Under the pieces are notes generated by a model. The model worked only from the letters and a program-made list of their open reading frames with translations. It searched no databases and was not told the origin of the DNA. Below are positions 7,564 to 60,890 of a DNA stretch of 64,000 bases, piece by piece; position 1 is the stretch's first letter, and each line of letters begins with the position of its first letter. Where the stretch lies: positions 366,903 to 430,902 of the forward strand of contig JBFMDH010000001.1 in assembly GCA_040754075.1 (NCBI GenBank). Reading direction: 5' to 3'. Source of the DNA: Acidobacteriota bacterium (GTDB lineage Bacteria; Acidobacteriota; Blastocatellia; UBA7656). Position numbers and translations under genes: made by a program.

Positions 7564-7568
7564 TCAAA

Positions 7569-7687
7569 GTAAAAAGTAAAAAGGTAAAAGTTCGGCAAGC
7601 GGCATTAGCCCGCAGTCATATAAAAAAGGCAAAGGTAATTATCAAAAATCACTTTTGCCTTTTTACTTTTGCCTTTTTACTTTTTAC
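7569..7687. repeat. Inverted heptamer array / bidirectional terminator between convergent genes
   Basis: The left arm 7569-7590 is built of GTAAAAA-type 7-mers. The right arm 7652-7687 carries the reverse complement (units GCCTTTT and TACTTTT), with one mismatch over the outer 22 bp. The spacer is about 60 nt and contains a second stem (AAAAAAGGCAAA near 7622 with ACTTTTGCC at 7651). The element sits between two convergent genes and has T-runs on both strands, so it can act as a terminator in both directions. The right arm supplies the last codons and stop of the cytochrome gene. Confidence 0.75.
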
Positions 7688-8924
7688 TTACTTCAGGTTG
7701 TTGCAGGTTTTGATTGTCGAGGGTGAAGCCTACGAAACCAATCATCATCTCTTCCCAGGTCTGTTGTCCCCATCGCACCTCTTTCGTGGCATCGGGATTC
7801 CATTTATTTTTGGTCGAATTATCGAAGTGCGCGACGCATTCGATGCGGCTGCCTTTGGGCGCAGCAACCGGCTGGGCAAATTCATAGCGCGTCTGCCAGT
7901 TGAAATCATACCTCGGAACCGAAAGCAGAATTTTCGTCGTGCCATCGGGCAACACCAGACGATATAGAAAATCTTTGCCGCGCAGATGCATATGTGGCAT
8001 CAGGTCGGTGATGTGCGCATCCTCTTTGAAGCGAAAACGCGAAGTGACTTCATAACTATCCGCGCCTGCCGGAATCACAAAACGACTATTCAAAGCTGCG
8101 CCGCCCATGCGAATCTTCTGCACAGGCTTTTTCGCAAATATCAAACCAATCGAAGTCTTATCTTTTTGTGCGGTGCCGTTCGTGGTGTAGTGCATTTGCA
8201 GGACGAGCATCGAATTGGCTTTTACCAATTTCGCCTCGCCATCAGGAAGCGAGACTTCGCCTTCGCCGGGCGCGTAACCGACCAGACCCAATATGCCATC
8301 GCGCGCAAAAGCCGCGCGAAGTTGTCCGGGTTCAACCACAAAAGCGATGACGTGATGCACGACAGCGCGATTGCCCGGACGCACCTCTGCCGCCTGTACC
8401 CATTTATCCTCTTTGAAATTCGTCGGCACGATGAAATATTGATAATTGACCGTGCCGTTGGCGGGGACTTCAAATTCGCGCGCCGTCAACACCACATCGG
8501 GGGTGCCGATGTTCCAACCGGCTGTGAATTGCGGCGCGGGCGGCAACTCTTTGGCGTTGCCTTCTTTCATCCCCGTATCGACCCAGTTGATAATCGTCTC
8601 TTTTTCCTGTTTGGAAAGACGGCGGTCATTACTGAACGCGCCGTGCGCGGGGTCGGCGTGCCAGGGCGGCATTGCGCCTTCGGCAACTTTCTCGCGAATC
8701 GAACGCCCCCACGGGCGCGTCTCTTTGTAGGTCATCAATGAAAACGGGGCGATTTCGCCGGGTCTGTGACATTCGGCGCATTTACTGTAAAAAATCGGCG
8801 CAATGTCTTTGGTAAAGGTAAGCGGTTTGGTGTTTTTGGTGTCGGCATTGCCGGTTGATGCAATAATCATCGCGCACCCAAACAACAAGCCGACGCTTAC
8901 CGTGAACATTAAATTTCTTTTCAT
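7677..8924 (-). CDS. Secreted cytochrome c / copper monooxygenase-like protein
   Basis: 415 aa with a signal peptide (residues 1-27) and AGGAG 8 nt before the ATG. A haem c motif CAECH at 49-53 lies in a planctomycete-type cytochrome domain (FTKDIAPIFYSKCAECH, MPPWHAD). The C-terminal two thirds resemble the copper type II ascorbate-dependent monooxygenase fold, with candidate copper ligands His190-His191, Met244-His245 and His311/His313 (HMHLRG). It is probably a periplasmic redox protein; substrate and direct role are unknown. The final codons and stop come from a heptamer repeat array, so the C-terminal tail (EVSKK) is probably not ancestral. Confidence 0.85.
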   Translation of the reverse strand: MKRNLMFTVSVGLLFGCAMIIASTGNADTKNTKPLTFTKDIAPIFYSKCAECHRPGEIAPFSLMTYKETRPWGRSIREKVAEGAMPPWHADPAHGAFSNDRRLSKQEKETIINWVDTGMKEGNAKELPPAPQFTAGWNIGTPDVVLTAREFEVPANGTVNYQYFIVPTNFKEDKWVQAAEVRPGNRAVVHHVIAFVVEPGQLRAAFARDGILGLVGYAPGEGEVSLPDGEAKLVKANSMLVLQMHYTTNGTAQKDKTSIGLIFAKKPVQKIRMGGAALNSRFVIPAGADSYEVTSRFRFKEDAHITDLMPHMHLRGKDFLYRLVLPDGTTKILLSVPRYDFNWQTRYEFAQPVAAPKGSRIECVAHFDNSTKNKWNPDATKEVRWGQQTWEEMMIGFVGFTLDNQNLQQPEVSKK

Positions 8925-35570: not shown

Positions 35571-35733
35571 CTTTGATAATGGTTAGCGCCCCGTCGAGCC
35601 ACCGAGTGAAATTGGCAAAATTGCAAACCCAAAGGGACACCGGTAAAACTTCAACGGCTCATTCTGACCCTCAGCCGCTAATCGCGTCTGCCCGAGTGTG
35701 AAAAGCTTCGCGCATCGGTTAAAATCTCCAGTG

Positions 35734-36477
35734 ATGAATGATCAATTACACCTCGATGTTTTAGCTGTAGGCGCACACCCTGATGATGTCGAACTCGGAT
35801 GCGGGGGAACGCTTGCGAAACTCGCAGCAATGGGCTACCGCGTTGGCATACTCGATATGACACGCGGCGAAACCGGAACCCGCGGCACTCCCGAAATTCG
35901 CGCTCAGGAAGCCGAAGCCGCCGCCAAAGTTTTAAACCTCGCCATTCGTGATAATCTCGAACTCCCGGACGCGCACGTCTGTTTAAATGATGAATCGCGC
36001 GTCCGCATGGTGAGAAAAATTCGCCGGTATCGCCCGCGCATCATGTTTACCCACTTCTGGGAAGACCCGCACCCCGACCACGTCAACACCTGCCGGATTG
36101 TCCGTGAAGCGGCGCATCTGGCGGGGCTTGCCAAATATGACGACGCCTCAAATCAATTGCGCCATCGCCCGAACACCGTAGCGCATTTCATGTTTCCACA
36201 CACCATCACGCCAACTTTTATGGTCGATATTTCCGAGTACGCCGAACAGAAACGGCAGGCGGTTTGCTGCTATCGCTCGCAACTCTTTGACGCCAGCAGC
36301 AAAGAACCGCAAACCTATCTGAGCGATGAAAAATTTGTTCAGCGGCTGGAATCAAAAGACCTCTTTTTCGGTTATACCATTGGATGCGATCAAGCCGAAG
36401 GTTTCGTCGTACGCGAAGCCCTGAACGTCCACGACCCGGTCGATTTACTCACCCGAAAGATGAGCATGTACTCATGA
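35734..36477 (+). CDS. bshB1: Bacillithiol biosynthesis deacetylase BshB1 (PIG-L family)
   Basis: 247 aa from ATG 35734; GTG 35698 upstream would add 12 residues. The LmbE/PIG-L zinc motif AHPDD is at 14-18, with a second ligand set in HFWEDPHPDH. The protein removes the acetyl group from N-acetylglucosaminyl-malate in bacillithiol synthesis. The partner gene bshA lies just downstream, separated only by a repeat-flanked four-helix-bundle cassette. The stop codon TGA (36475-36477) abuts the first repeat array. The cysteine-adding bshC gene is not in the window. Confidence 0.92.
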   Translation: MNDQLHLDVLAVGAHPDDVELGCGGTLAKLAAMGYRVGILDMTRGETGTRGTPEIRAQEAEAAAKVLNLAIRDNLELPDAHVCLNDESRVRMVRKIRRYRPRIMFTHFWEDPHPDHVNTCRIVREAAHLAGLAKYDDASNQLRHRPNTVAHFMFPHTITPTFMVDISEYAEQKRQAVCCYRSQLFDASSKEPQTYLSDEKFVQRLESKDLFFGYTIGCDQAEGFVVREALNVHDPVDLLTRKMSMYS

Positions 36478-36479
36478 AA

Positions 36480-37009
36480 GTCGAGAGTCTGGAGTCTGGA
36501 GTCCTGAGTCTCAGGATCACCGGCATACATTCGATTAACCTTAAAGTGTAAAGCGGGGGAACAAAGCAGGAGAAAATGCATGGCTACGTTCACGAAATTT
36601 GAAGACATTAAAGCCTGGCAGAAAGCCCGCGAAGTTACGCGAACGATTTATGAGTTGACCGCTAACGACCGCTTTGCAAGAGACTTTGGTTTGCGCGATC
36701 AAATTCGCCGCGCAGCGGTTTCAATTATGGCAAACATCGCTGAAGGGTTTGGCAGGCATTCCGATAAAGAGTTTTCCTATTTTTTAAGCATGTCTCATGG
36801 CTCGATTGCCGAAGTGCAATCACATTTATATATTGCCCTAGACCTGCGATACATTGAGCAAAAAGATTTCTCAATGCTTTATCGTTCACTTGATGAAACT
36901 TCACGCATGACACTCGCATTGGCTCAACATCTGAGAAAGCCTAAACCTTAATTCGGAAATAAATTTTGAAAGGACAGACTCCAGACTCTCGACTCTCGAC
37001 TCCAGACTT
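36480..37009. mobile_element. Candidate cassette: inverted heptamer arrays flanking a four-helix-bundle gene
   Basis: Five 7-nt units at 36480-36514 (GTCGAGA, GTCTGGA, GTCTGGA, GTCCTGA, GTCTCAG) are mirrored by five units at 36975-37009 (CAGACTC, CAGACTC, TCGACTC, TCGACTC, CAGACTT). Both arms are 35 nt. The enclosed segment carries one gene (36580-36951). The pair fills the whole space between the bshB1 stop and the bshA ATG. AAAGGA at 36969-36974, a likely ribosome binding site for bshA, is pushed about 37 nt from the ATG by the right arm. The layout suggests insertion at the gene junction. Confidence 0.6.
36580..36951 (+). CDS. Four-helix-bundle protein (23S rRNA IVP / S23 family)
   Basis: 123 aa with AGGAG 9 nt before the ATG. 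The family pattern is complete: FEDIKAWQKAREVTRTIYEL, LRDQIRRAAVSIMANIAEGFGR, EFSYFLSMSHGSIAEVQSHL and the last helix. This fold was named for intervening sequences in 23S rRNA genes and is also used by Avd accessory proteins of diversity-generating retroelements; neither an rRNA gene nor a reverse transcriptase is near. Function here is unknown. It is bracketed by inverted heptamer arrays inside the bacillithiol operon. Confidence 0.88.
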   Translation: MATFTKFEDIKAWQKAREVTRTIYELTANDRFARDFGLRDQIRRAAVSIMANIAEGFGRHSDKEFSYFLSMSHGSIAEVQSHLYIALDLRYIEQKDFSMLYRSLDETSRMTLALAQHLRKPKP

Positions 37010-37011
37010 TT

Positions 37012-38172
37012 ATGAAAATCGGTATTACTTGCTACCCATCATACGGCGGCAGCGGCATCGTTGGCGCGGAACTCGGAGTTGAACTCGCCAAGCGCGGTCA
37101 TTCGGTGCATTTCGTCAGCTACGCGCCGCCCATGCGACTTGGCAACGAAGAACGCGAAGGCGTGCAGTTTCATCCGGTGGATATGTTCACCTATCCGCTG
37201 TTTGAATATCCGCCGTACACCGATGCGCTTGCCTCGAAATTGAAAGAGGTGGCGGTTCAGGAAAAACTCGATGTGCTGCACATGCATTATGCGATTCCGC
37301 ATTCGATTAGCGCCTACCTGGCGCGAGAGATGTTAAAACCCGAACGTTACCTGCCGACGGTGACCACTTTGCATGGCACAGACATTACCCTTGTCGGACG
37401 CGACCCGTCGTTTCTGTCCATCACGCAATTTGGCATCGAGCAATCGGACGGGGTTACGGCGATTTCAAAATATTTGCGCGCGGCGACCTGGGAGACCTTT
37501 TGTATGGGGTGCGATATTCAGGTGATTTACAATTTTATTGACGCTGATTATTACCATCGCGAGCCGCACGAAGCGTTAAAAAAACAGATTGCGCCGAAGG
37601 GCGAAAAAATCATTTTACATATTTCGACCTTTAGACCGGTGAAACGCATCGGTGATTGTATAGAAGTGCTGGCGCGTATGCGTGAACTTGAAAACGGCTC
37701 TGGTAGCCGCTTTGGAGTCAAACTGGTGATGTGCGGCGATGGTCCTGAGCGTGATGATGCCGAAGCGTTAGCCGATAGTTTGGGCATCAGCGAATGCGTG
37801 ATTTTTGCCGGCAAACAACCGCAATCGGTGATTCGCGATTACTTGTCGATTGCCGATTTGTTATTGCTGCCAAGTCTCACGGAATCATTTGGATTGGTGG
37901 CGCTGGAAGCAATGGCTTGCGAAGTGCCGGTGATTGCCACGCGCGTTGGCGGCATTCCCGAAGTGGTTGTCGAAAACGAAACCGGCTTTATGTTCGAGGT
38001 CGGCGATATTCAGGGAATGGCAGAAGCCGCTTTGAAAATTTTAAATGACCAAGCCTTGCAGGAGCGCTTAGGACGACGCGGTCACGACCTTGCGGTTTCC
38101 GAGTTCACCACCGATAAAATCATCCCGCAATACGAAGCGCTTTATGAAAAACTGGTGCGCGAACATGCATAA
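37012..38172 (+). CDS. bshA: N-acetyl-alpha-D-glucosaminyl L-malate synthase BshA
   Basis: 386 aa GT4 glycosyltransferase. The BshA N-terminus is clear (KIGITCYPSYGGSGIVGAEL), with LHMHYAIPHSISAYLAR, HGTDITLVGRDPSF and the donor-site ESFGLVALEAMACEVPVI. It joins UDP-GlcNAc to L-malate, the first step of bacillithiol synthesis. The ATG lies 2 nt after a heptamer repeat array and has no ribosome binding site at normal distance; AAAGGA is about 37 nt upstream. Translation may therefore be weak, leader-structure dependent or S1-assisted. Confidence 0.95.
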   Translation: MKIGITCYPSYGGSGIVGAELGVELAKRGHSVHFVSYAPPMRLGNEEREGVQFHPVDMFTYPLFEYPPYTDALASKLKEVAVQEKLDVLHMHYAIPHSISAYLAREMLKPERYLPTVTTLHGTDITLVGRDPSFLSITQFGIEQSDGVTAISKYLRAATWETFCMGCDIQVIYNFIDADYYHREPHEALKKQIAPKGEKIILHISTFRPVKRIGDCIEVLARMRELENGSGSRFGVKLVMCGDGPERDDAEALADSLGISECVIFAGKQPQSVIRDYLSIADLLLLPSLTESFGLVALEAMACEVPVIATRVGGIPEVVVENETGFMFEVGDIQGMAEAALKILNDQALQERLGRRGHDLAVSEFTTDKIIPQYEALYEKLVREHA

Positions 38173-44224: not shown

Positions 44225-44228
<4 letters not shown>

Positions 44229-47026
44229 TCGTAATTCAATACCTCGACCCGCGAGGCGCGCGCCGCCGGATAAAGACCGGCGATTGCCGTGACCAGTAAA
44301 ATCGCGACAGCCGATTGCAACAAAAACAGTAATGGAAAACTGAATTGAATCGTCCAGCCGAACGATTGCACATTGATGACGTAAATCAACACCAGCGACA
44401 TTAATGTGCCAATGATTGCGCCGATAGCTTCGCTTACGACTCCTATCAACAACGCTTCGATGACAATCATGCGGCGAATTTGCGAACGCGATGAACCTAA
44501 GAAAGTGAGCATCGCAAGCTCTGCCCGGCGCTCCAAAATCAAGGTTATCAACGTTGAAATTACGCCAAGCCCGGCAACCACAATGGCAATTAATTCCAGC
44601 GCATAAGTGATTGCAAAGGTGCTGTTGAAAATTCGCATGACTTCGTTGCGAATCGTTGCATTCGTGGTGATGATGAGTTGAAATCGCAATCCAACGGTTT
44701 GCGCCAGACGGTCGCGCGCGGCTTCCGTGTCTTCACCGGGTTTTAAATAAATCGACAGACTCACCGGACGAACCGGCGTGAAATATTTATCGTGGGTTTG
44801 TTTGTCCATCGCGATGGTTCCGCGATTGCTCGAATAGTCGAAATAGATGCCGATGATTTTAAATTGTTGTGTTCCCTGGTTGGTTGCGAGTTCGACCGTG
44901 TCACCTACCGCTTTTTTAAACTTCAAGGCAAAACTTTCGGTAACGATGATTTCATCTTTGCCCACCGCATCAATCATTCGTTCGCGCCCGTTTGCAGGCG
45001 ATTTGAAAAGCAACCGCCCATGTCGCGCAAAGATGGAAAAATCGCTTGAACCCAGTGAAATCAGATTGCCCTGATAGGTTAAAGATTGCGAAGCGTAAGC
45101 ATGCACTGCATCAACCGCCGCGTCTGCCTTTATCATTGCCAACGCCTGGTCATTGATTTCGCTGTCAACGGTTGTTGAACTGCGTATGATGGGGCGCGCG
45201 AAAATATCCGCGACCAGCGATTGGTCAACCCAGTAGGTGACGGTTTCGCGGAAACTGCCAATCATAATCGAAATCGCCACCATCATCGCGAGACTTACGG
45301 ACAAAGCGGCTACGGAAATCGAGACCCGCGGAATTGCCCCGCGCAGGTTGGCGCTTGCAAGTTTGGCTTCGACGGCAAACCTGCGAAAAAGTTTGCCAAT
45401 CCCTCGTCCGAGGAATTTGCAGGCAGCCAGCAAAGTTTGCGGCACCAGGAATGCGCCGCCAAACATTAATGAGACGGCTGCCAGATAACCGAAAAGCGGC
45501 AACCCATTCACGGCATCCAAACGACTGAATACAAAACCTGCGATGAATAAAATTGCCGCGATAATCAAGGTTTTGGGCGAAGGATTGAAACTTGCTGCCA
45601 GGCGTTTTGCGCCGCGCAGGGCTTCAACGACGCGCACCCGCGAGGCTTCCATTGCAGGCATCAATGCTGCAACCAGCGCGAGGGCTAAAGCGATAACGAA
45701 CGCCAACAGCGCGTCCATCCAGGTCAAACTGTTGTGCGCCGCGGATTCGGTTGCCGCCGATGCGATATAAAAGGTGTCAACCGTAGTGGCAGTCGCGCGC
45801 ACCGCAAAATTCGCCATTAACCTGCCGATGCCAAGACCGATAATGGTTCCAACGATGGCAAGCAAAATGGCTTCACCGAGAAAGAGCGCAAGAATCGCGC
45901 GGCGAGAGGCGCCGATGGCGCGCAGCGTGCCAATCTCTTCGCGGCGCGCGAGTACCGAAATCGCAATCGTGTTGTAGATTAAAAACAATCCAACAAACAG
46001 CGCGATTGAACCAAGCGCATTCAAATTGAAATGAAATGCGGCAATCATTTTTTCAATCTGATTGTAGGTTGCGGACGGTCGCGTGACCTGCAAACCTTGT
46101 GGCAAACGACCGGCAATTGCCGATTCCGCCTGTTCAATCGTTATCTTGTTTTTCAATTTCACGTCAACGCGGTCAAGATAGCCCAGGCGATTAAATGCGA
46201 GTTGTGCGGCGGCAATATCCATCAAAATGAAATTGCCATCCAACGTCTTCGCGGGACCTTCATCGCGCAGCATGCCGCGAATCACAAACTCGCGCTGCGT
46301 ATCACCGATGGTAAGCCGGAGTTTGTCGGCGATTTTTAAATGATGTTTTCGGGCAAATTTTTCGGTGATGATGATGGATTGCGCGTCTGTGAGTAAAAAC
46401 AGAAAATCGCGGGTGGTAATCTCTGTTTCATTCGCGCCGATGTCGAGTAATTGATAACGCCTGAGCGAACGATCACGCAAAATATCTACGCCAAGAATAT
46501 GCACAAATTCGGAGAAGTCAGGAGTCCGGAGTCTGGCGTCTGGAGTCGCGATGCCGGAAGTTGAGGACTGAGTTTCTGTTGTTGGAATGGATGATGCCTC
46601 AGCAGTGATGAGCGGGTTGTTACTATTCTGACTTCTGACTTCTGACTTCTGACTTCCTGTTTGTGACTCCAGACTCCTGACTCCTGACTCGTGACTTCCT
46701 GTTTCTGAATCCTGAATCCTTGTCGAAGCGAGCGCGTAACCTTCGATGACCGGGCTGATGTCGCCGTACTGGCGCAGCCAGTCGAGTTCGTTCAATTGGG
46801 TTTCATCGAACCTGCCGGCGGTGCCGCTGATTTGAATGGAAGTTTCTCCGGCGATGGACTGAGTAGCGGTTTTGAATGAATCAAGCGCGCTCATATTCGC
46901 AAGCCGAATGGCGATCATCACGCCAACACCCAGGCTGATGCCGAGCGCCGTAAAACTCGAACGCAATTTTTCACGCGCGAGGGCGCGAATGATGAACCGC
47001 TTAAACAGGCTGAAGTAGACTTTCAT
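44225..47026 (-). CDS. FtsX/LolC-type ABC transporter permease with repeat-derived insertion
   Basis: 933 aa with two FtsX units: helix 1 near 20-45, a MacB-like periplasmic domain, three helices (ALGSIALFVGLFLIYNTIAI onward), then a second set ending in three helices at the C-terminus. It would work with the ATPase at 47167-47865 as a lipoprotein/lipid extraction system. Residues about 103-171 are a low-complexity stretch (for example GSHESGVRSLESQTGSQKS) encoded by an inverted heptamer array inserted in frame. The ATG lies 4 nt after another heptamer array and has no visible ribosome binding site. Confidence 0.88.
46514..46720. repeat. In-frame inverted heptamer array inside the FtsX permease gene
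   Basis: The left arm 46514-46548 has units GAAGTCA, GGAGTCC, GGAGTCT, GGCGTCT, GGAGTCG. The right arm 46629-46720 has inverse units (TTCTGAC x4, CTCCAGA, CTCCTGA x2). The total length of 207 bp is a multiple of three, so the reading frame is kept. The spacer is about 80 nt. Confidence 0.7.
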
Positions 47027-47030
47027 AATC

Positions 47031-47189
47031 GGTAGCCGGTAGCCAGTAGTCGGTAGCCAGTGGTCGGTAGCCGGTGGTCGGTTTTAATCAATCGAAAATT
47101 CTTTCTATGATGGGATTCATAAATTTCACTTTCGCTGACTGCCAGTTTCTGATGACCGGCTACCGGCTACCGATTACCGACCACCGATT
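47031..47189. repeat. Inverted heptamer array at the ATPase/permease junction
   Basis: The left arm 47031-47082 has seven units of type RGTRGYC (GGTAGCC, GGTAGCC, AGTAGTC and so on). The right arm 47154-47189 has five inverse units (GACCGGC, TACCGGC, TACCGAT, TACCGAC, CACCGAT). The right arm encodes the last residues and the stop of the ATPase; the left arm ends 4 nt before the permease ATG. The spacer is 71 nt with no gene. Confidence 0.75.
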
Positions 47190-57365: not shown

Positions 57366-57522
57366 GCAGTAAGCAGCAGGCAGTAGGCAGTCACAACTAT
57401 CGCAAATCAATTTTTTCCTTTGTTGAGAAGCGGCATTTGACCGCGACCATAAACTCGTTGACTGAATGTCATTGGTCACTCGCAACTTGCCAATGACGAA
57501 CGACCAATGACCGATGACAACT
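57366..57522. repeat. Two heptamer arrays between kinase and permease genes
   Basis: The first array 57366-57393 has units CAGTAAG, CAGCAGG, CAGTAGG, CAGTCAC. The second array 57491-57518 has CAATGAC, GAACGAC, CAATGAC, CGATGAC, with an inverse arm GTCATTGGTC at 57468-57477 pairing with GACCAATGAC at 57502-57511. The permease start codon lies inside the second array. Between them, 57421-57446 resembles the palindromic element at 38221-38347. Confidence 0.65.
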
Positions 57523-58875
57523 GAAAAACTCGCGCGTCGTTTGGGACTTTTTGATGCGACCATGATTGTGATGGGCGGCATCATCGGTTCCGGTATCTTC
57601 ATCAATCCGCACGTTGTCGCTAAAGAGGTTCATACTACCGTAGCGATTTTAGGCGCGTGGGCAGTTGGCGGACTCATCGCGCTGGCAGGCGCCTTCATCT
57701 ATGCGGAACTCGCCGCCACACAAACCGACACCGGCGGGCAATATGCCTATCTTCGCGAAGCCTTTCACCCGTCGGTGGCTTTCATTTACGGTTGGGGATT
57801 GTTGCTGGTTACGCAGACCGGCGGCATGGCTGCGGTCGCCATCACCTTTGCCAAATACTTTCTCCAACTCACAGGGAAAAATTCATCTGACACGAATGCG
57901 GCTCTGGTAGCCACTTTGACGCTGGCGCTGCTTACGATTATCAATTGCTTTGGAGTTCGCACCGGCAGCACCACGCAAAACATTCTGATGATTTTGAAAA
58001 TTGCCGCTATCGTCGCTTTAGTGGTCGTCGGTATCCGGTATTCGGTAGTCGGTAGTCAGATGCCTGATATGAATATTTCACCGCCGCTCAACGATTCTTC
58101 ACCGACTACCGAATACCGACCACTGGCTACCGCCTTTGGCGCGGCGTTGATTCCCGTAATGTTCGCGTATGGCGGCTGGCAGACTTCGAGTTTTATTGCA
58201 GGCGAAATGCGCGCCCCGCAACGGGATTTGCCTCGTGGATTATTGTATGGCGTGCTCGGTGTGATTGCGGTTTATTTAGCGGTGAATTTCGTTTGCGTAA
58301 GTGTGCTTGGCACAAGCGGGCTAGCGGCAACCGATACGCCCGCATCGGAAGTGATGCGGCTGGCGCTTGGCGAACGCGGCGCGAAATTCATTGCCATCGG
58401 GATTGCAATTTCGACGCTTGGCTTTTTAAGTCAAGGGATGCTCACCGCGCCCCGCGTCTATTTCGCGATGGCTGAAGATGGCGTGTTTTTCAAAAGCGTA
58501 GCGAAATTAAATCAAGCCCGTGTGCCGGTCGTTGCCATTGCTTTGCAAGGCATCTGGGCAGCGGTCATCGCCATGTCGGGCAGGTACGAACAGATTCTCA
58601 ATTATGTGGTGTCGGTCGATTTCATGTTTTTCGGCGTCACCGCGCTTTGTGTCTTCGTCTTTCGTCATCGCGCGAAAAGTGCCAACGCGGGATTTAAAAT
58701 TCCCGGTCATCCCTTCACCACAGCTTTTTTCGTTATCGCCTGTTTCGTGGTGGTGGTGAGCACGGTGAATAAAGATTTAAAAAACAGCTTGATCGGTTAC
58801 GCCATTTTGCTTTCGGGATTGCCGGTCTATTTTTTATGGAAAATTTTTAAACAAAAGGCAGATAACGAAGAATAA
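57514..58875 (+). CDS. APC family amino acid permease with repeat-derived loop
   Basis: 453 aa, twelve predicted helices. The LeuT-fold start VMGGIIGSGIFINPHVVAKE and the LIALAGAFIYAEL, FAYGGWQTSSFIAGEM segments fit the basic/neutral amino acid APC group. Residues about 172-207 (YSVVGSQMPDMNIS ... SPTTEYRPLAT) are encoded by an inverted heptamer array inserted in the loop between two helices. The ATG is embedded in another heptamer array and has no ribosome binding site at the usual distance. Substrate cannot be stated; a role in hydroxyproline uptake is only a guess given the distance from that cluster. Confidence 0.88.
   Translation: MTTEKLARRLGLFDATMIVMGGIIGSGIFINPHVVAKEVHTTVAILGAWAVGGLIALAGAFIYAELAATQTDTGGQYAYLREAFHPSVAFIYGWGLLLVTQTGGMAAVAITFAKYFLQLTGKNSSDTNAALVATLTLALLTIINCFGVRTGSTTQNILMILKIAAIVALVVVGIRYSVVGSQMPDMNISPPLNDSSPTTEYRPLATAFGAALIPVMFAYGGWQTSSFIAGEMRAPQRDLPRGLLYGVLGVIAVYLAVNFVCVSVLGTSGLAATDTPASEVMRLALGERGAKFIAIGIAISTLGFLSQGMLTAPRVYFAMAEDGVFFKSVAKLNQARVPVVAIALQGIWAAVIAMSGRYEQILNYVVSVDFMFFGVTALCVFVFRHRAKSANAGFKIPGHPFTTAFFVIACFVVVVSTVNKDLKNSLIGYAILLSGLPVYFLWKIFKQKADNEE
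58029..58132. repeat. In-frame inverted heptamer array inside the permease gene
   Basis: The left arm 58029-58058 has units CGGTATC, CGGTATT, CGGTAGT, CGGTAGT. The right arm 58101-58132 carries the inverse (ACCGACTACCGAATACCGAC onward). The spacer is about 42 nt. The array encodes a hydrophilic loop between membrane helices. Confidence 0.75.
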
Positions 58876-60716: not shown

Positions 60717-60890
60717 CTCACGGAAAAAGACCAGGCATTGATTAGAAGTAAATTTCCCAGCGGATAACGCGGATGCGGCGGATGAGGACGGATAAATTGA
60801 TTCGGGATTATCAACGAGGAATCAAGTTTATCGATTTTCAAAAAACCCGCGTTAATCCGCGCGATCCGCTGCATCCGCTGGGAAACCAGC
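60717..60890 (+). repeat. Interspersed box-linker-hairpin repeat, copy C (most complete)
   Basis: CTCACGGAAAAAGACC (60717-60732), a 20-nt linker, then TTTCCCAGCGGAT (60753-60765) pairing perfectly with ATCCGCTGGGAAA (60873-60885) and ending CCAGC. The interior has GCGGAT-type units and AACGCGGAT / ATCCGCG complements. It occupies most of the 439-bp gap between the aminotransferase and VWA genes (60649-61087), where no gene is supported. GGGAGAGGAG before 61088 is the VWA ribosome binding site. Confidence 0.8.

What the first reader, a model, noticed from the sequence alone, without database searches (positions are those of the whole stretch)
36480..37009. Four-helix-bundle gene carried between inverted heptamer arrays inside the bacillithiol operon
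The segment between bshB1 and bshA is bounded by two inverted arrays, each exactly five 7-nt units (35 nt). It begins 2 nt after the bshB1 stop and ends 2 nt before the bshA ATG, and it encodes only an IVP/S23-type four-helix protein. The arrays match in style several gene-less inverted arrays in the window. This looks like an autonomous/non-autonomous pair: a cassette with the gene, and short derivatives without it. Established: the protein family is found in 23S rRNA intervening sequences and as Avd. Inference: here the protein or its RNA helps the cassette move or be removed.
Basis: partly seen in the sequence, partly recalled or inferred. Interest (0 to 1): 0.75.

Follow-up and report, generated by a model that had tools for sequence, protein, structure and literature searches.

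The report
One-gene mobile element with heptamer-array ends
A small gene of unknown function, known mainly from odd inserts in ribosomal RNA genes, is here the single gene of a tiny mobile DNA element whose two ends are mirrored runs of a short repeat; such elements occur in many bacterial phyla and at least one archaeon, and each version of the gene tends to go with its own version of the repeat.

Summary
Observation confirmed: an IVP/S23 four-helix-bundle gene sits between inverted 7-nt arrays in the bshB1-bshA gap. 12 of 13 IVP genes of the genome have such ends, as do 53 of 62 class loci (random segments 11 of 1500), 61 of 80 loci of a cross-phylum scan (control 0 of 189) and 24 of 29 viral-contig loci. 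The unit differs between copies but follows the protein: IVP pairs at least 60% identical share units across genomes and phyla (0 of 5000 and 0 of 2000 permutations reach it). In this genome 14 of 22 gene-less inverted arrays carry a resident IVP gene's unit; elsewhere, with incomplete IVP sets, the fit was not significant. Movement is shown by two copies alike from arm to arm in unrelated flanks and by seven filled/empty plasmid sites (six with the gene). Ends abut stop codons (18 of 20; random intergenic points 9%), mostly within operons, gene in sense. Eight of 11 relatives have gene-less arrays at bsh; two have tiny empty gaps. No general target duplication and no recombinase was found. 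Best reading: a one-gene mobile element whose protein probably recognises its own repeat; the catalytic step is unknown.

The parts
35698..36477 (+).
36474..36479 (+). ATGAAA, also at 37012-37017; possible target duplication, not significant by itself
36476..36514 (+). left array, unit about AGTCTGG / AGTCGAG (core AGTC plus 3 variable nt)
36580..36951 (+). IVP / S23 four-helix-bundle gene, 123 aa
   Evidence: PF05635 124.5 bits, cut-off 33.8; TIGR02436 117.4 bits, cut-off 24; AlphaFold2 model pLDDT 94.8, nearest 2GSC
36975..37009 (+). right array, inverted complement of the left
7566..7689 (.). gene-less inverted array, unit like AAAGTAA (cosine 0.66 to own IVP locus L012), 2 nt after a stop codon
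46513..46720 (.). gene-less inverted array, AGTCTGG family (cosine 0.79 to the window element) with an AGAAGTC-type array inside, in frame inside the ORF 44225-47026 (-)
47030..47187 (.). gene-less inverted array, unit CGGTAGC (cosine 0.94 to own IVP locus L002), between two ORFs on the - strand, overlapping the 3' end of the upstream one
58029..58119 (.). gene-less inverted array, CGGTAGT family (cosine 0.58 to L002), in frame inside the APC permease-like ORF 57514-58875

Best explanation
The segment is one copy of a one-gene mobile element. SHOWN: the element is [array - IVP gene - inverted array], it moves as a unit, it lands at or within a few nt of stop codons, mostly inside operons and with its gene in the sense of the upstream gene, and the repeat unit goes with the protein across genomes and phyla. 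SHOWN for this genome only: many gene-less inverted arrays carry the unit of a resident IVP gene. INFERRED: the IVP protein (a ring of five in the solved Xanthomonas relative, by PMC4990558) binds the 4-5 nt core repeated in each arm, on DNA or RNA, and so marks its own element and, in trans, gene-less arrays of the same unit for copying; arms of like unit also recombine and swap the loop between them. UNKNOWN: which enzyme cuts and joins. The element lands beside a stop codon or brings its own, so the operon stays readable.
For: 12 of 13 own IVP genes with paired arms; 53 of 62 in the class sample vs 11 of 1500 random segments; 61 of 80 in a cross-phylum scan, one of them archaeal, control 0 of 189; 24 of 29 viral-contig loci, some of these near-identical. 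L049/L059, two loci of one genome: 94.9% identical over 447 nt, arm to arm, flanks unrelated. Seven filled/empty sites on plasmids, six with the gene and one gene-less. Unit follows protein: 26 cross-genome pairs at >=60% identity, mean 4-mer cosine 0.47 vs 0.10 permuted, 0 of 5000; 87 pairs in the set with cross-phylum loci, 0.40 vs 0.12, 0 of 2000. Own-genome fit of gene-less arrays 14 of 22. Three-unit pattern of the Bosea/G000 unit in 3 of 12 genomes, of the Pseudoxanthomonas unit in 3 of 12 (see the report for what is unresolved). Inverted pairs in samples of 15 of 21 genomes with three or more IVP matches and 0 of 18 with fewer. Stop-codon abutment 18 of 20 vs 9%. Gene in sense with the upstream ORF 62 of 67. 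Uneven variation within units (core and spacer) in 37 of 70 arrays at p<0.05.
Against: No general target duplication: direct repeats of >=5 nt at the ends of 17 of 111 IVP and 6 of 44 gene-less elements, null 13% and 15%. IVP domains have median net charge 0 (n=114, range -5 to 7), not what a generic nucleic-acid binder shows. No catalytic motif was identified. Unit-protein coupling would also arise from mere co-inheritance. The own-genome fit was not significant for unpaired arrays (14 of 29 at cosine 0.5, p=0.11) nor in other genomes, where only part of the IVP loci was held (own above random in 8 of 21, p=0.76). 8 of 22 gene-less pairs of this genome fit no resident IVP unit. In Nostoc G040 the GGGGACN pattern has 5 hits and its reversed control 88. 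G011 has 7-mer arrays (10 per 100 kb) but no IVP match; G036 and five other genomes with three or more IVP matches gave no inverted pair; Y1 transposase counts correlate with 7-mer array density almost as well as IVP counts (0.72 vs 0.75; with inverted pairs 0.47 vs 0.67). Nine of 62 class loci and 19 of 80 cross-phylum loci lack paired arms. Other cargo inside arms was not searched for.
Confidence: 0.7

Rival explanations
1. The arrays are the mobile or self-copying thing (slippage, template switching, recombination or another transposase); the IVP gene is a passenger that was captured and stays linked to its unit by descent.
For: Gene-less pairs outnumber gene-bearing ones (22 to 2 in 464 kb); loops of gene-less arrays are unrelated and differ between two plasmids that share the outer edge of what looks like one insertion (L352/L368); no general target duplication; Y1_Tnp numbers correlate with arrays.
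Against: The same gene family lies inside the arms in many phyla; samples of 18 genomes with 0-2 IVP matches show no inverted pair, although G021 and G025 with one IVP gene each have dispersed array matches; Y1 genes are not themselves in such arms (2 of 21 with paired arms, periods 6 and 9); many arrays keep a core and vary in a spacer, which slippage alone does not predict.
Confidence: 0.2
2. RNA-level role: the inverted arrays form a processing stem in the transcript and IVP binds that RNA; the element is tolerated because it is cut out or shielded, as in 23S rRNA intervening sequences, and movement is incidental or by rare reverse copying.
For: Gene in sense with the upstream ORF 62 of 67; ends at stop codons; RNase III removes the Coxiella IVS (PMC4990558, passages); fold like Avd, which is solved within a DGR ribonucleoprotein; arms match in register slightly better than permuted (53 of 77 above the permuted mean, p=2e-5).
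Against: The register signal is weak: only 3 of 77 loci exceed all 60 permutations. Nine of 19 genomes with four or more IVP matches have no RVT_1 match, so a resident reverse transcriptase of that family is not required.
Confidence: 0.25
3. IVP genes are functional partners of the operons they sit in (bacillithiol, CRISPR, conjugation), with arrays as regulators.
For: 18 IVP genes reported in cas loci and described among functions associated with CRISPR-Cas (PMC3936711, passages); IVP named in a figure legend of CRISPR-linked candidates (PMC10910872, one passage).
Against: Host operons differ from locus to locus; related operons exist without the element, including cmr (PCC 7003 vs PCC 7002) and bsh.
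Confidence: 0.03

Closest known systems
23S rRNA intervening sequences (IVS) with S23p ORF (PMC4990558, passages read)
   Same: same protein family; ORF in an insert with inverted repeats; heptamer repeats (GACAGAT) of variable number directly upstream of the Coxiella S23p ORF; called selfish there, and a mobile origin was proposed
   Different: here in protein operons, not in rRNA (no rRNA match by Rfam in the 80 cross-phylum loci, the window or the other 12 own loci); both ends are arrays with a lineage-specific unit; gene-less arrays of like unit dispersed in the genome
G-rich heptamer repeats of Xanthomonas and Nostoc (PMC4692102, passages read)
   Same: 7-nt units, many in convergent pairs (70 cases in Xcc), between aligned ORFs, G-rich strand mostly within 50 bp of the stop codon
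   Different: studied there as quadruplex-forming repeats, generally not found with mobile elements; the words S23 and four helix do not occur in that text
TAACTGA repeats of Beggiatoaceae and others (PMC4679880, passages read)
   Same: intergenic heptamer arrays in distant phyla, horizontal transfer suspected, no mechanism evident
   Different: nearly all direct sets of one unit; S23 and four helix do not occur in that text
Avd of diversity-generating retroelements
   Same: fold: Avd chains follow 2GSC and 2RLD (8ub8_C Z 14.4, 1.9 A over 109 residues)
   Different: 8-9% identity; no reverse transcriptase beside the gene; unrelated helical proteins reach Z 13.4, so the likeness is not decisive
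REP/REPIN elements with RAYT (Y1) transposases (recalled)
   Same: short inverted repeats in intergenic space, non-autonomous copies served in trans
   Different: no Y1 gene in the element; ends are arrays whose unit varies by element

Membership tests
23S_rRNA_IVP / S23 protein family (PF05635, TIGR02436) | profile score over the curated cut-off | tested here: met
   124.5 bits vs 33.8; 117.4 vs 24
23S_rRNA_IVP / S23 protein family (PF05635, TIGR02436) | four-helix bundle like 2GSC | tested here: met
   model pLDDT 94.8, four helices; 2GSC Z 19.1, 1.5 A over 113 residues
23S_rRNA_IVP / S23 protein family (PF05635, TIGR02436) | homopentameric ring | not testable with these tools
   stated for the Xanthomonas protein in PMC4990558 (passage); only a monomer was predicted here
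23S rRNA intervening sequence | lies in a 23S rRNA gene | tested here: not met
   between two protein ORFs; no Rfam match in the window at gathering threshold
23S rRNA intervening sequence | S23p ORF between inverted repeats | tested here: met
23S rRNA intervening sequence | removed from the RNA by RNase III | not testable with these tools
   needs RNA data
Diversity-generating retroelement (Avd) | reverse transcriptase beside the avd gene | tested here: not met
   neighbours are the PIG-L and glycosyltransferase ORFs; the two RVT_1 matches of the genome lie on contigs C12 and C14, the window on C1
Classic terminal-inverted-repeat transposon / MITE | constant target-site duplication | tested here: not met
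   17 of 111 IVP and 6 of 44 gene-less elements with >=5 nt, at null level; only plasmid site A shows a likely one
Classic terminal-inverted-repeat transposon / MITE | encodes a known recombinase (autonomous form) | tested here: inconclusive
   the IVP ORF is the only one between the arms that was scanned, and it matches no recombinase; two mechanical ORFs of 72 and 64 aa on the other strand were not scanned
REP/RAYT system | Y1 transposase gene flanked by its repeats | tested here: not met
   2 of 21 Y1 loci with paired arms, periods 6 and 9, not of this kind
G-rich heptamer repeats (PMC4692102) | G-rich 7-nt units near stop codons, convergent pairs | tested here: met
   arms read inward G 0.36 vs C 0.14 in 48 sampled pairs; stop distances

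The most novel reading that the evidence does not exclude
IVP elements are a class of mobile element of their own, in which a ring protein of about 120 aa, with no known catalytic motif, reads a tandem repeat that is private to its lineage and directs, alone or with host enzymes acting on operon RNA or DNA at stop codons, the copying of its own element and of gene-less arrays in trans. 23S rRNA intervening sequences would be members that landed in rRNA, and the unexplained heptamer arrays of Xanthomonas, Nostoc, Beggiatoaceae and others would be its non-autonomous copies.
Probability: 0.4. Interest if true: 0.95.

Novelty: categorically new. Interest (0 to 1): 0.88.

Why it matters
It gives a context, and so a test, to a widespread small protein family without a known function (IVP/S23), ties together three loose ends (23S rRNA intervening sequences, intergenic heptamer arrays of several phyla, IVP genes reported in cas loci), and offers an element whose end sequence changes with its protein, open to direct binding and movement assays. 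If the protein is the mobility factor, it would be one of the smallest such systems. It also warns against reading operon neighbours of IVP genes as functional partners.

Tried and rejected
Reverse transcriptase as a needed partner: RVT_1 absent in 9 of 19 genomes with four or more IVP matches (G001, G006, G008, G010, G024, G027, G028, G032, G036). Y1 transposase as cargo: 2 of 21 loci with paired arms (21 of the 30 Y1 loci that cut were tested), although its counts correlate with arrays. Target duplication as a general feature: looked convincing at plasmid site A (GTAAT) and at bsh (ATGAAA), but the 111-element test was at null level; at site B the apparent repeat is part of the array unit; sites D, E and F look as if a few target bases were lost; C and G are unclear. 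Perfect hairpin kept by selection: only weak register. Gene-less arrays as plain deletion copies: no loop homology apart from further arrays. Clean empty site for the array inside the APC permease ORF: the loop varies in length in relatives, not decisive. Same period in related proteins: not significant (588 of 5000). The first Mantel run had two proteins on the wrong strand (L118, L125); redone. The detector misses the L018 array because the arms touch; it is plain by eye. Folds not listed by VIA-align are not excluded.

Full report
What is there. The ORF belongs to the 23S_rRNA_IVP / S23 four-helix-bundle family. Its AlphaFold2 model (pLDDT 94.8) is nearest to XCC0516 (2GSC, Z 19.1) and BT_0352 (2RLD, Z 17.3); the DGR protein Avd follows at Z 14.4, but unrelated helical proteins reach 13.4, so the likeness to Avd is suggestive only.

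Is it a rule? The genome (G000) has 13 IVP matches. Twelve of the 13 lie between inverted arrays with differing units: nine have 7-mers, two 8-mers, one a 9-mer; L011 has no such pair. In a class sample the tools cut loci for 62 of 173 IVP matches in 39 genomes; 53 of 62 have paired arms at a score that 11 of 1500 random segments from samples of the same genomes reach. 61 of 80 have paired arms, most of 7 nt, some of 8-10 nt; of the two archaeal loci one has them. 0 of 189 control segments from the same loci do, and 24 of 29 loci of a viral-contig scan do, several of these being near-copies of each other. The 80 lean towards relatives of the first query row (L049), and L273 is the same locus as L114 of the class sample. 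No rRNA was matched by Rfam in the 80, in the window or in the other 12 own loci; the one match was a 6S RNA in L304.

The unit follows the protein. Among 55 class loci with arms, 26 cross-genome pairs of proteins at 60% identity or more have a mean 4-mer cosine between arms of 0.47; permuted labels give 0.10, and 0 of 5000 permutations reach it (pairs on a list of eleven syntenic ones were left out). In the set of 114 loci with the cross-phylum ones, 87 pairs at 60% or more have 0.40 against 0.12 (0 of 2000). Examples: GAAGTGA-type arms with G017, a Poribacteria and a Rhodanobacter protein; AGAAGTCAG-type arms with Acidobacteria, Nitrospiraceae, Nostoc and Ignavibacteria proteins. Below 60% identity arms are usually unlike (62 of 4858 pairs above cosine 0.5), so the unit changes in time. 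Within arrays of 7-mers, variation is uneven in 37 of 70 at p<0.05, by eye as a conserved core of about 4-5 nt and a variable spacer; whole-unit duplication makes these p values optimistic. Read inward, arms are G-rich (G 0.36, C 0.14; AGT 15.7 times ACT in 48 sampled pairs).

Gene-less arrays. In 464 kb of G000 there are 24 inverted pairs within 700 nt, two of them with an IVP gene. Of the 22 others, 14 match the unit of a resident IVP gene at cosine 0.5 or more and 13 fit better than with any of 43 foreign IVP loci; own fit exceeds random sets of 12 in 15 of 22 (Wilcoxon p=0.010). The eight misfits include two units seen at IVP genes of other genomes (GGATTCA, ATTGCGG) and an AGTCCGT family without a known gene. 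Unpaired arrays (14 of 29 at cosine 0.5, p=0.11) and pairs of other genomes, of which only some IVP loci were held (own above random in 8 of 21, p=0.76), gave no significant result. Two exact three-unit patterns were counted in 12 genomes: GGCAGTN in G000 (13), Bosea (22) and Rudanella (13), 0 in the other nine; GGGGACN in Pseudoxanthomonas (85), Sphaerospermopsis (268) and Nostoc (5), 0 in the other nine. The reversed-pattern control is 0 in all but Nostoc (7 and 88) and Sphaerospermopsis (0 and 6), so Nostoc shows nothing for GGGGACN itself. For G000, Bosea and Pseudoxanthomonas an IVP gene lies between arms of that unit; in Sphaerospermopsis a GGGGACT array lies upstream of one IVP gene but not as a pair; for Rudanella the cognate gene is not known. 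Across 39 genomes, samples of 13-464 kb show inverted pairs in 15 of 21 genomes with three or more IVP matches and in 0 of 18 with fewer; sampling is thin, a few pairs may be other repeats, and G021/G025 (Chloracidobacterium by recollection), with one IVP gene each, do have 84 and 73 matches to a 3.3-kb IVP locus, most at its array stretches (units not read one by one). G002, without an IVP match, has one 7-mer array in the first 200 kb sampled and no inverted pair; its congener G005 has both.

Movement. L049 and L059 (G003) are two elements 94.9% identical over 447 nt, arm to arm, with unrelated flanks. On cyanobacterial plasmids seven sites were compared with natural empty sites: A, Trichormus and Scytonema filled, Nostoc linckia, Aulosira and N. 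carneum empty (97-98% identical); B and C, Nostoc pNsp-type plasmids; D, a gene-less array absent from L353, L367 and L370; E, between cas10 and cmr3 in PCC 7003, empty in PCC 7002 (91%); F and G, Aulosira and Calothrix plasmids. Brasilonema carries a gene-less element at site A. At site A a 5-nt duplication is likely; at B the apparent repeat belongs to the array; D, E and F look as if a few target bases were lost; C and G are unclear. Over 111 IVP and 44 gene-less elements, direct repeats at the ends are at null level, so the ATGAAA repeat at bsh (36474-36479, 37012-37017) is no proof of a duplication. Two plasmids (L352, L368) share the left outer edge of one nested gene-less element but differ in its loop, which suggests exchange between arms of like unit.

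Where it lands. In G000 (22 gene-less and 2 IVP pairs) 18 of 20 arm ends that face an ORF's stop codon lie within 15 nt of it or overlap it by up to 22 nt; random intergenic points are within 15 nt in 9%. For IVP elements 93 of 121 such distances are between -25 and +15 nt. The IVP gene runs with its upstream neighbour in 62 of 67 elements with both neighbours assigned, and with both in 52 (44 more could not be assigned). Two of 24 G000 pairs lie inside ORFs, both in the window. These counts rest on simple ORF calls.

The bsh gap itself. Of 29 relatives' loci cut, 11 have the two genes adjacent; eight of these carry a gene-less inverted array there, with differing units (L015-L019, L021, L023, L025), two have gaps of 5 and 7 nt without array (L042; L020 of G002) and one is unclear (L024); only the window genome has the IVP gene there. 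In G001 the bsh unit fits that of an IVP gene elsewhere in G001 (cosine 0.79), and in G003 likewise by eye (AGTCTGG, L018 and L045).

Mechanism. The element has one recognised gene and no known recombinase. Because the unit changes with the protein, the protein is the best candidate for the factor that recognises the ends; a ring of subunits over a tandem of short cores would fit, but this is inference, and the near-neutral charge does not help it. Plain co-inheritance of gene and arms would give the same coupling; the gene-less arrays of like unit in this genome are what argues for action in trans. The joining step is open. Stop-codon abutment, sense orientation and the rRNA cousins point to life in transcripts; selection against harmful insertions could give the same picture. 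The lack of RVT_1 in 9 of 19 genomes with four or more IVP matches speaks against a resident reverse transcriptase of that family.

Prior knowledge. Seen as passages: heptamer repeats upstream of S23p in the Coxiella IVS and the older proposal that IVS are mobile (PMC4990558); GGGAATC arrays with 70 convergent pairs in Xanthomonas, near stop codons, generally not found with mobile elements (PMC4692102); TAACTGA arrays with no mechanism evident (PMC4679880); 18 IVP genes in cas loci (PMC3936711); IVP in a figure legend of CRISPR-linked candidates (PMC10910872). In the listings of searches (two returned nothing) I saw no paper that links IVP genes with repeat arrays outside rRNA; only the papers named were opened, listings were capped, and subscription papers and bioRxiv are not held. 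I rate the kind as new because I know of no class with ends made of lineage-specific arrays around only this gene; one may also call it a wide extension of the 23S IVS idea.

Noticed in passing
L355 1480-1836 (Picosynechococcus PCC 7003 plasmid) vs L372: An IVP element sits between cas10 and cmr3 of a type III-B operon and is absent in PCC 7002; reported IVP-cas associations may be insertions of this kind.
   Followed up: yes
G011 (samples L149, L150): Genome without an IVP match but with 10 seven-mer arrays per 100 kb and ten Y1 matches: gene lost, missed, or another driver.
   Followed up: partly
L069:10704, L070:5389, L084:442, L086:13116 (G000): A dispersed AGTCCGT array family with no resident IVP gene of that unit found.
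   Followed up: partly
L254, L257, L261, L289: Bacteroidota IVP loci share a GAAGTTA-like core at spacings of 8, 9 and 10 nt, so the core is kept while the period changes.
   Followed up: partly
window 60760-60880: A 9-nt inverted repeat pair (GCGGAT) that fits no own IVP unit; perhaps a different repeat.
   Followed up: no
L368, within 455-746: The loop of a nested gene-less element holds a further palindrome and sequence unlike that of L352, while the left outer edge equals that of L352.
   Followed up: partly
   Followed up: partly
G040 (Nostoc mirabile): The backwards-read control pattern (CAGGGGN units) has 88 hits, against 5 for the pattern itself: another array family in that genome.
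   Followed up: no
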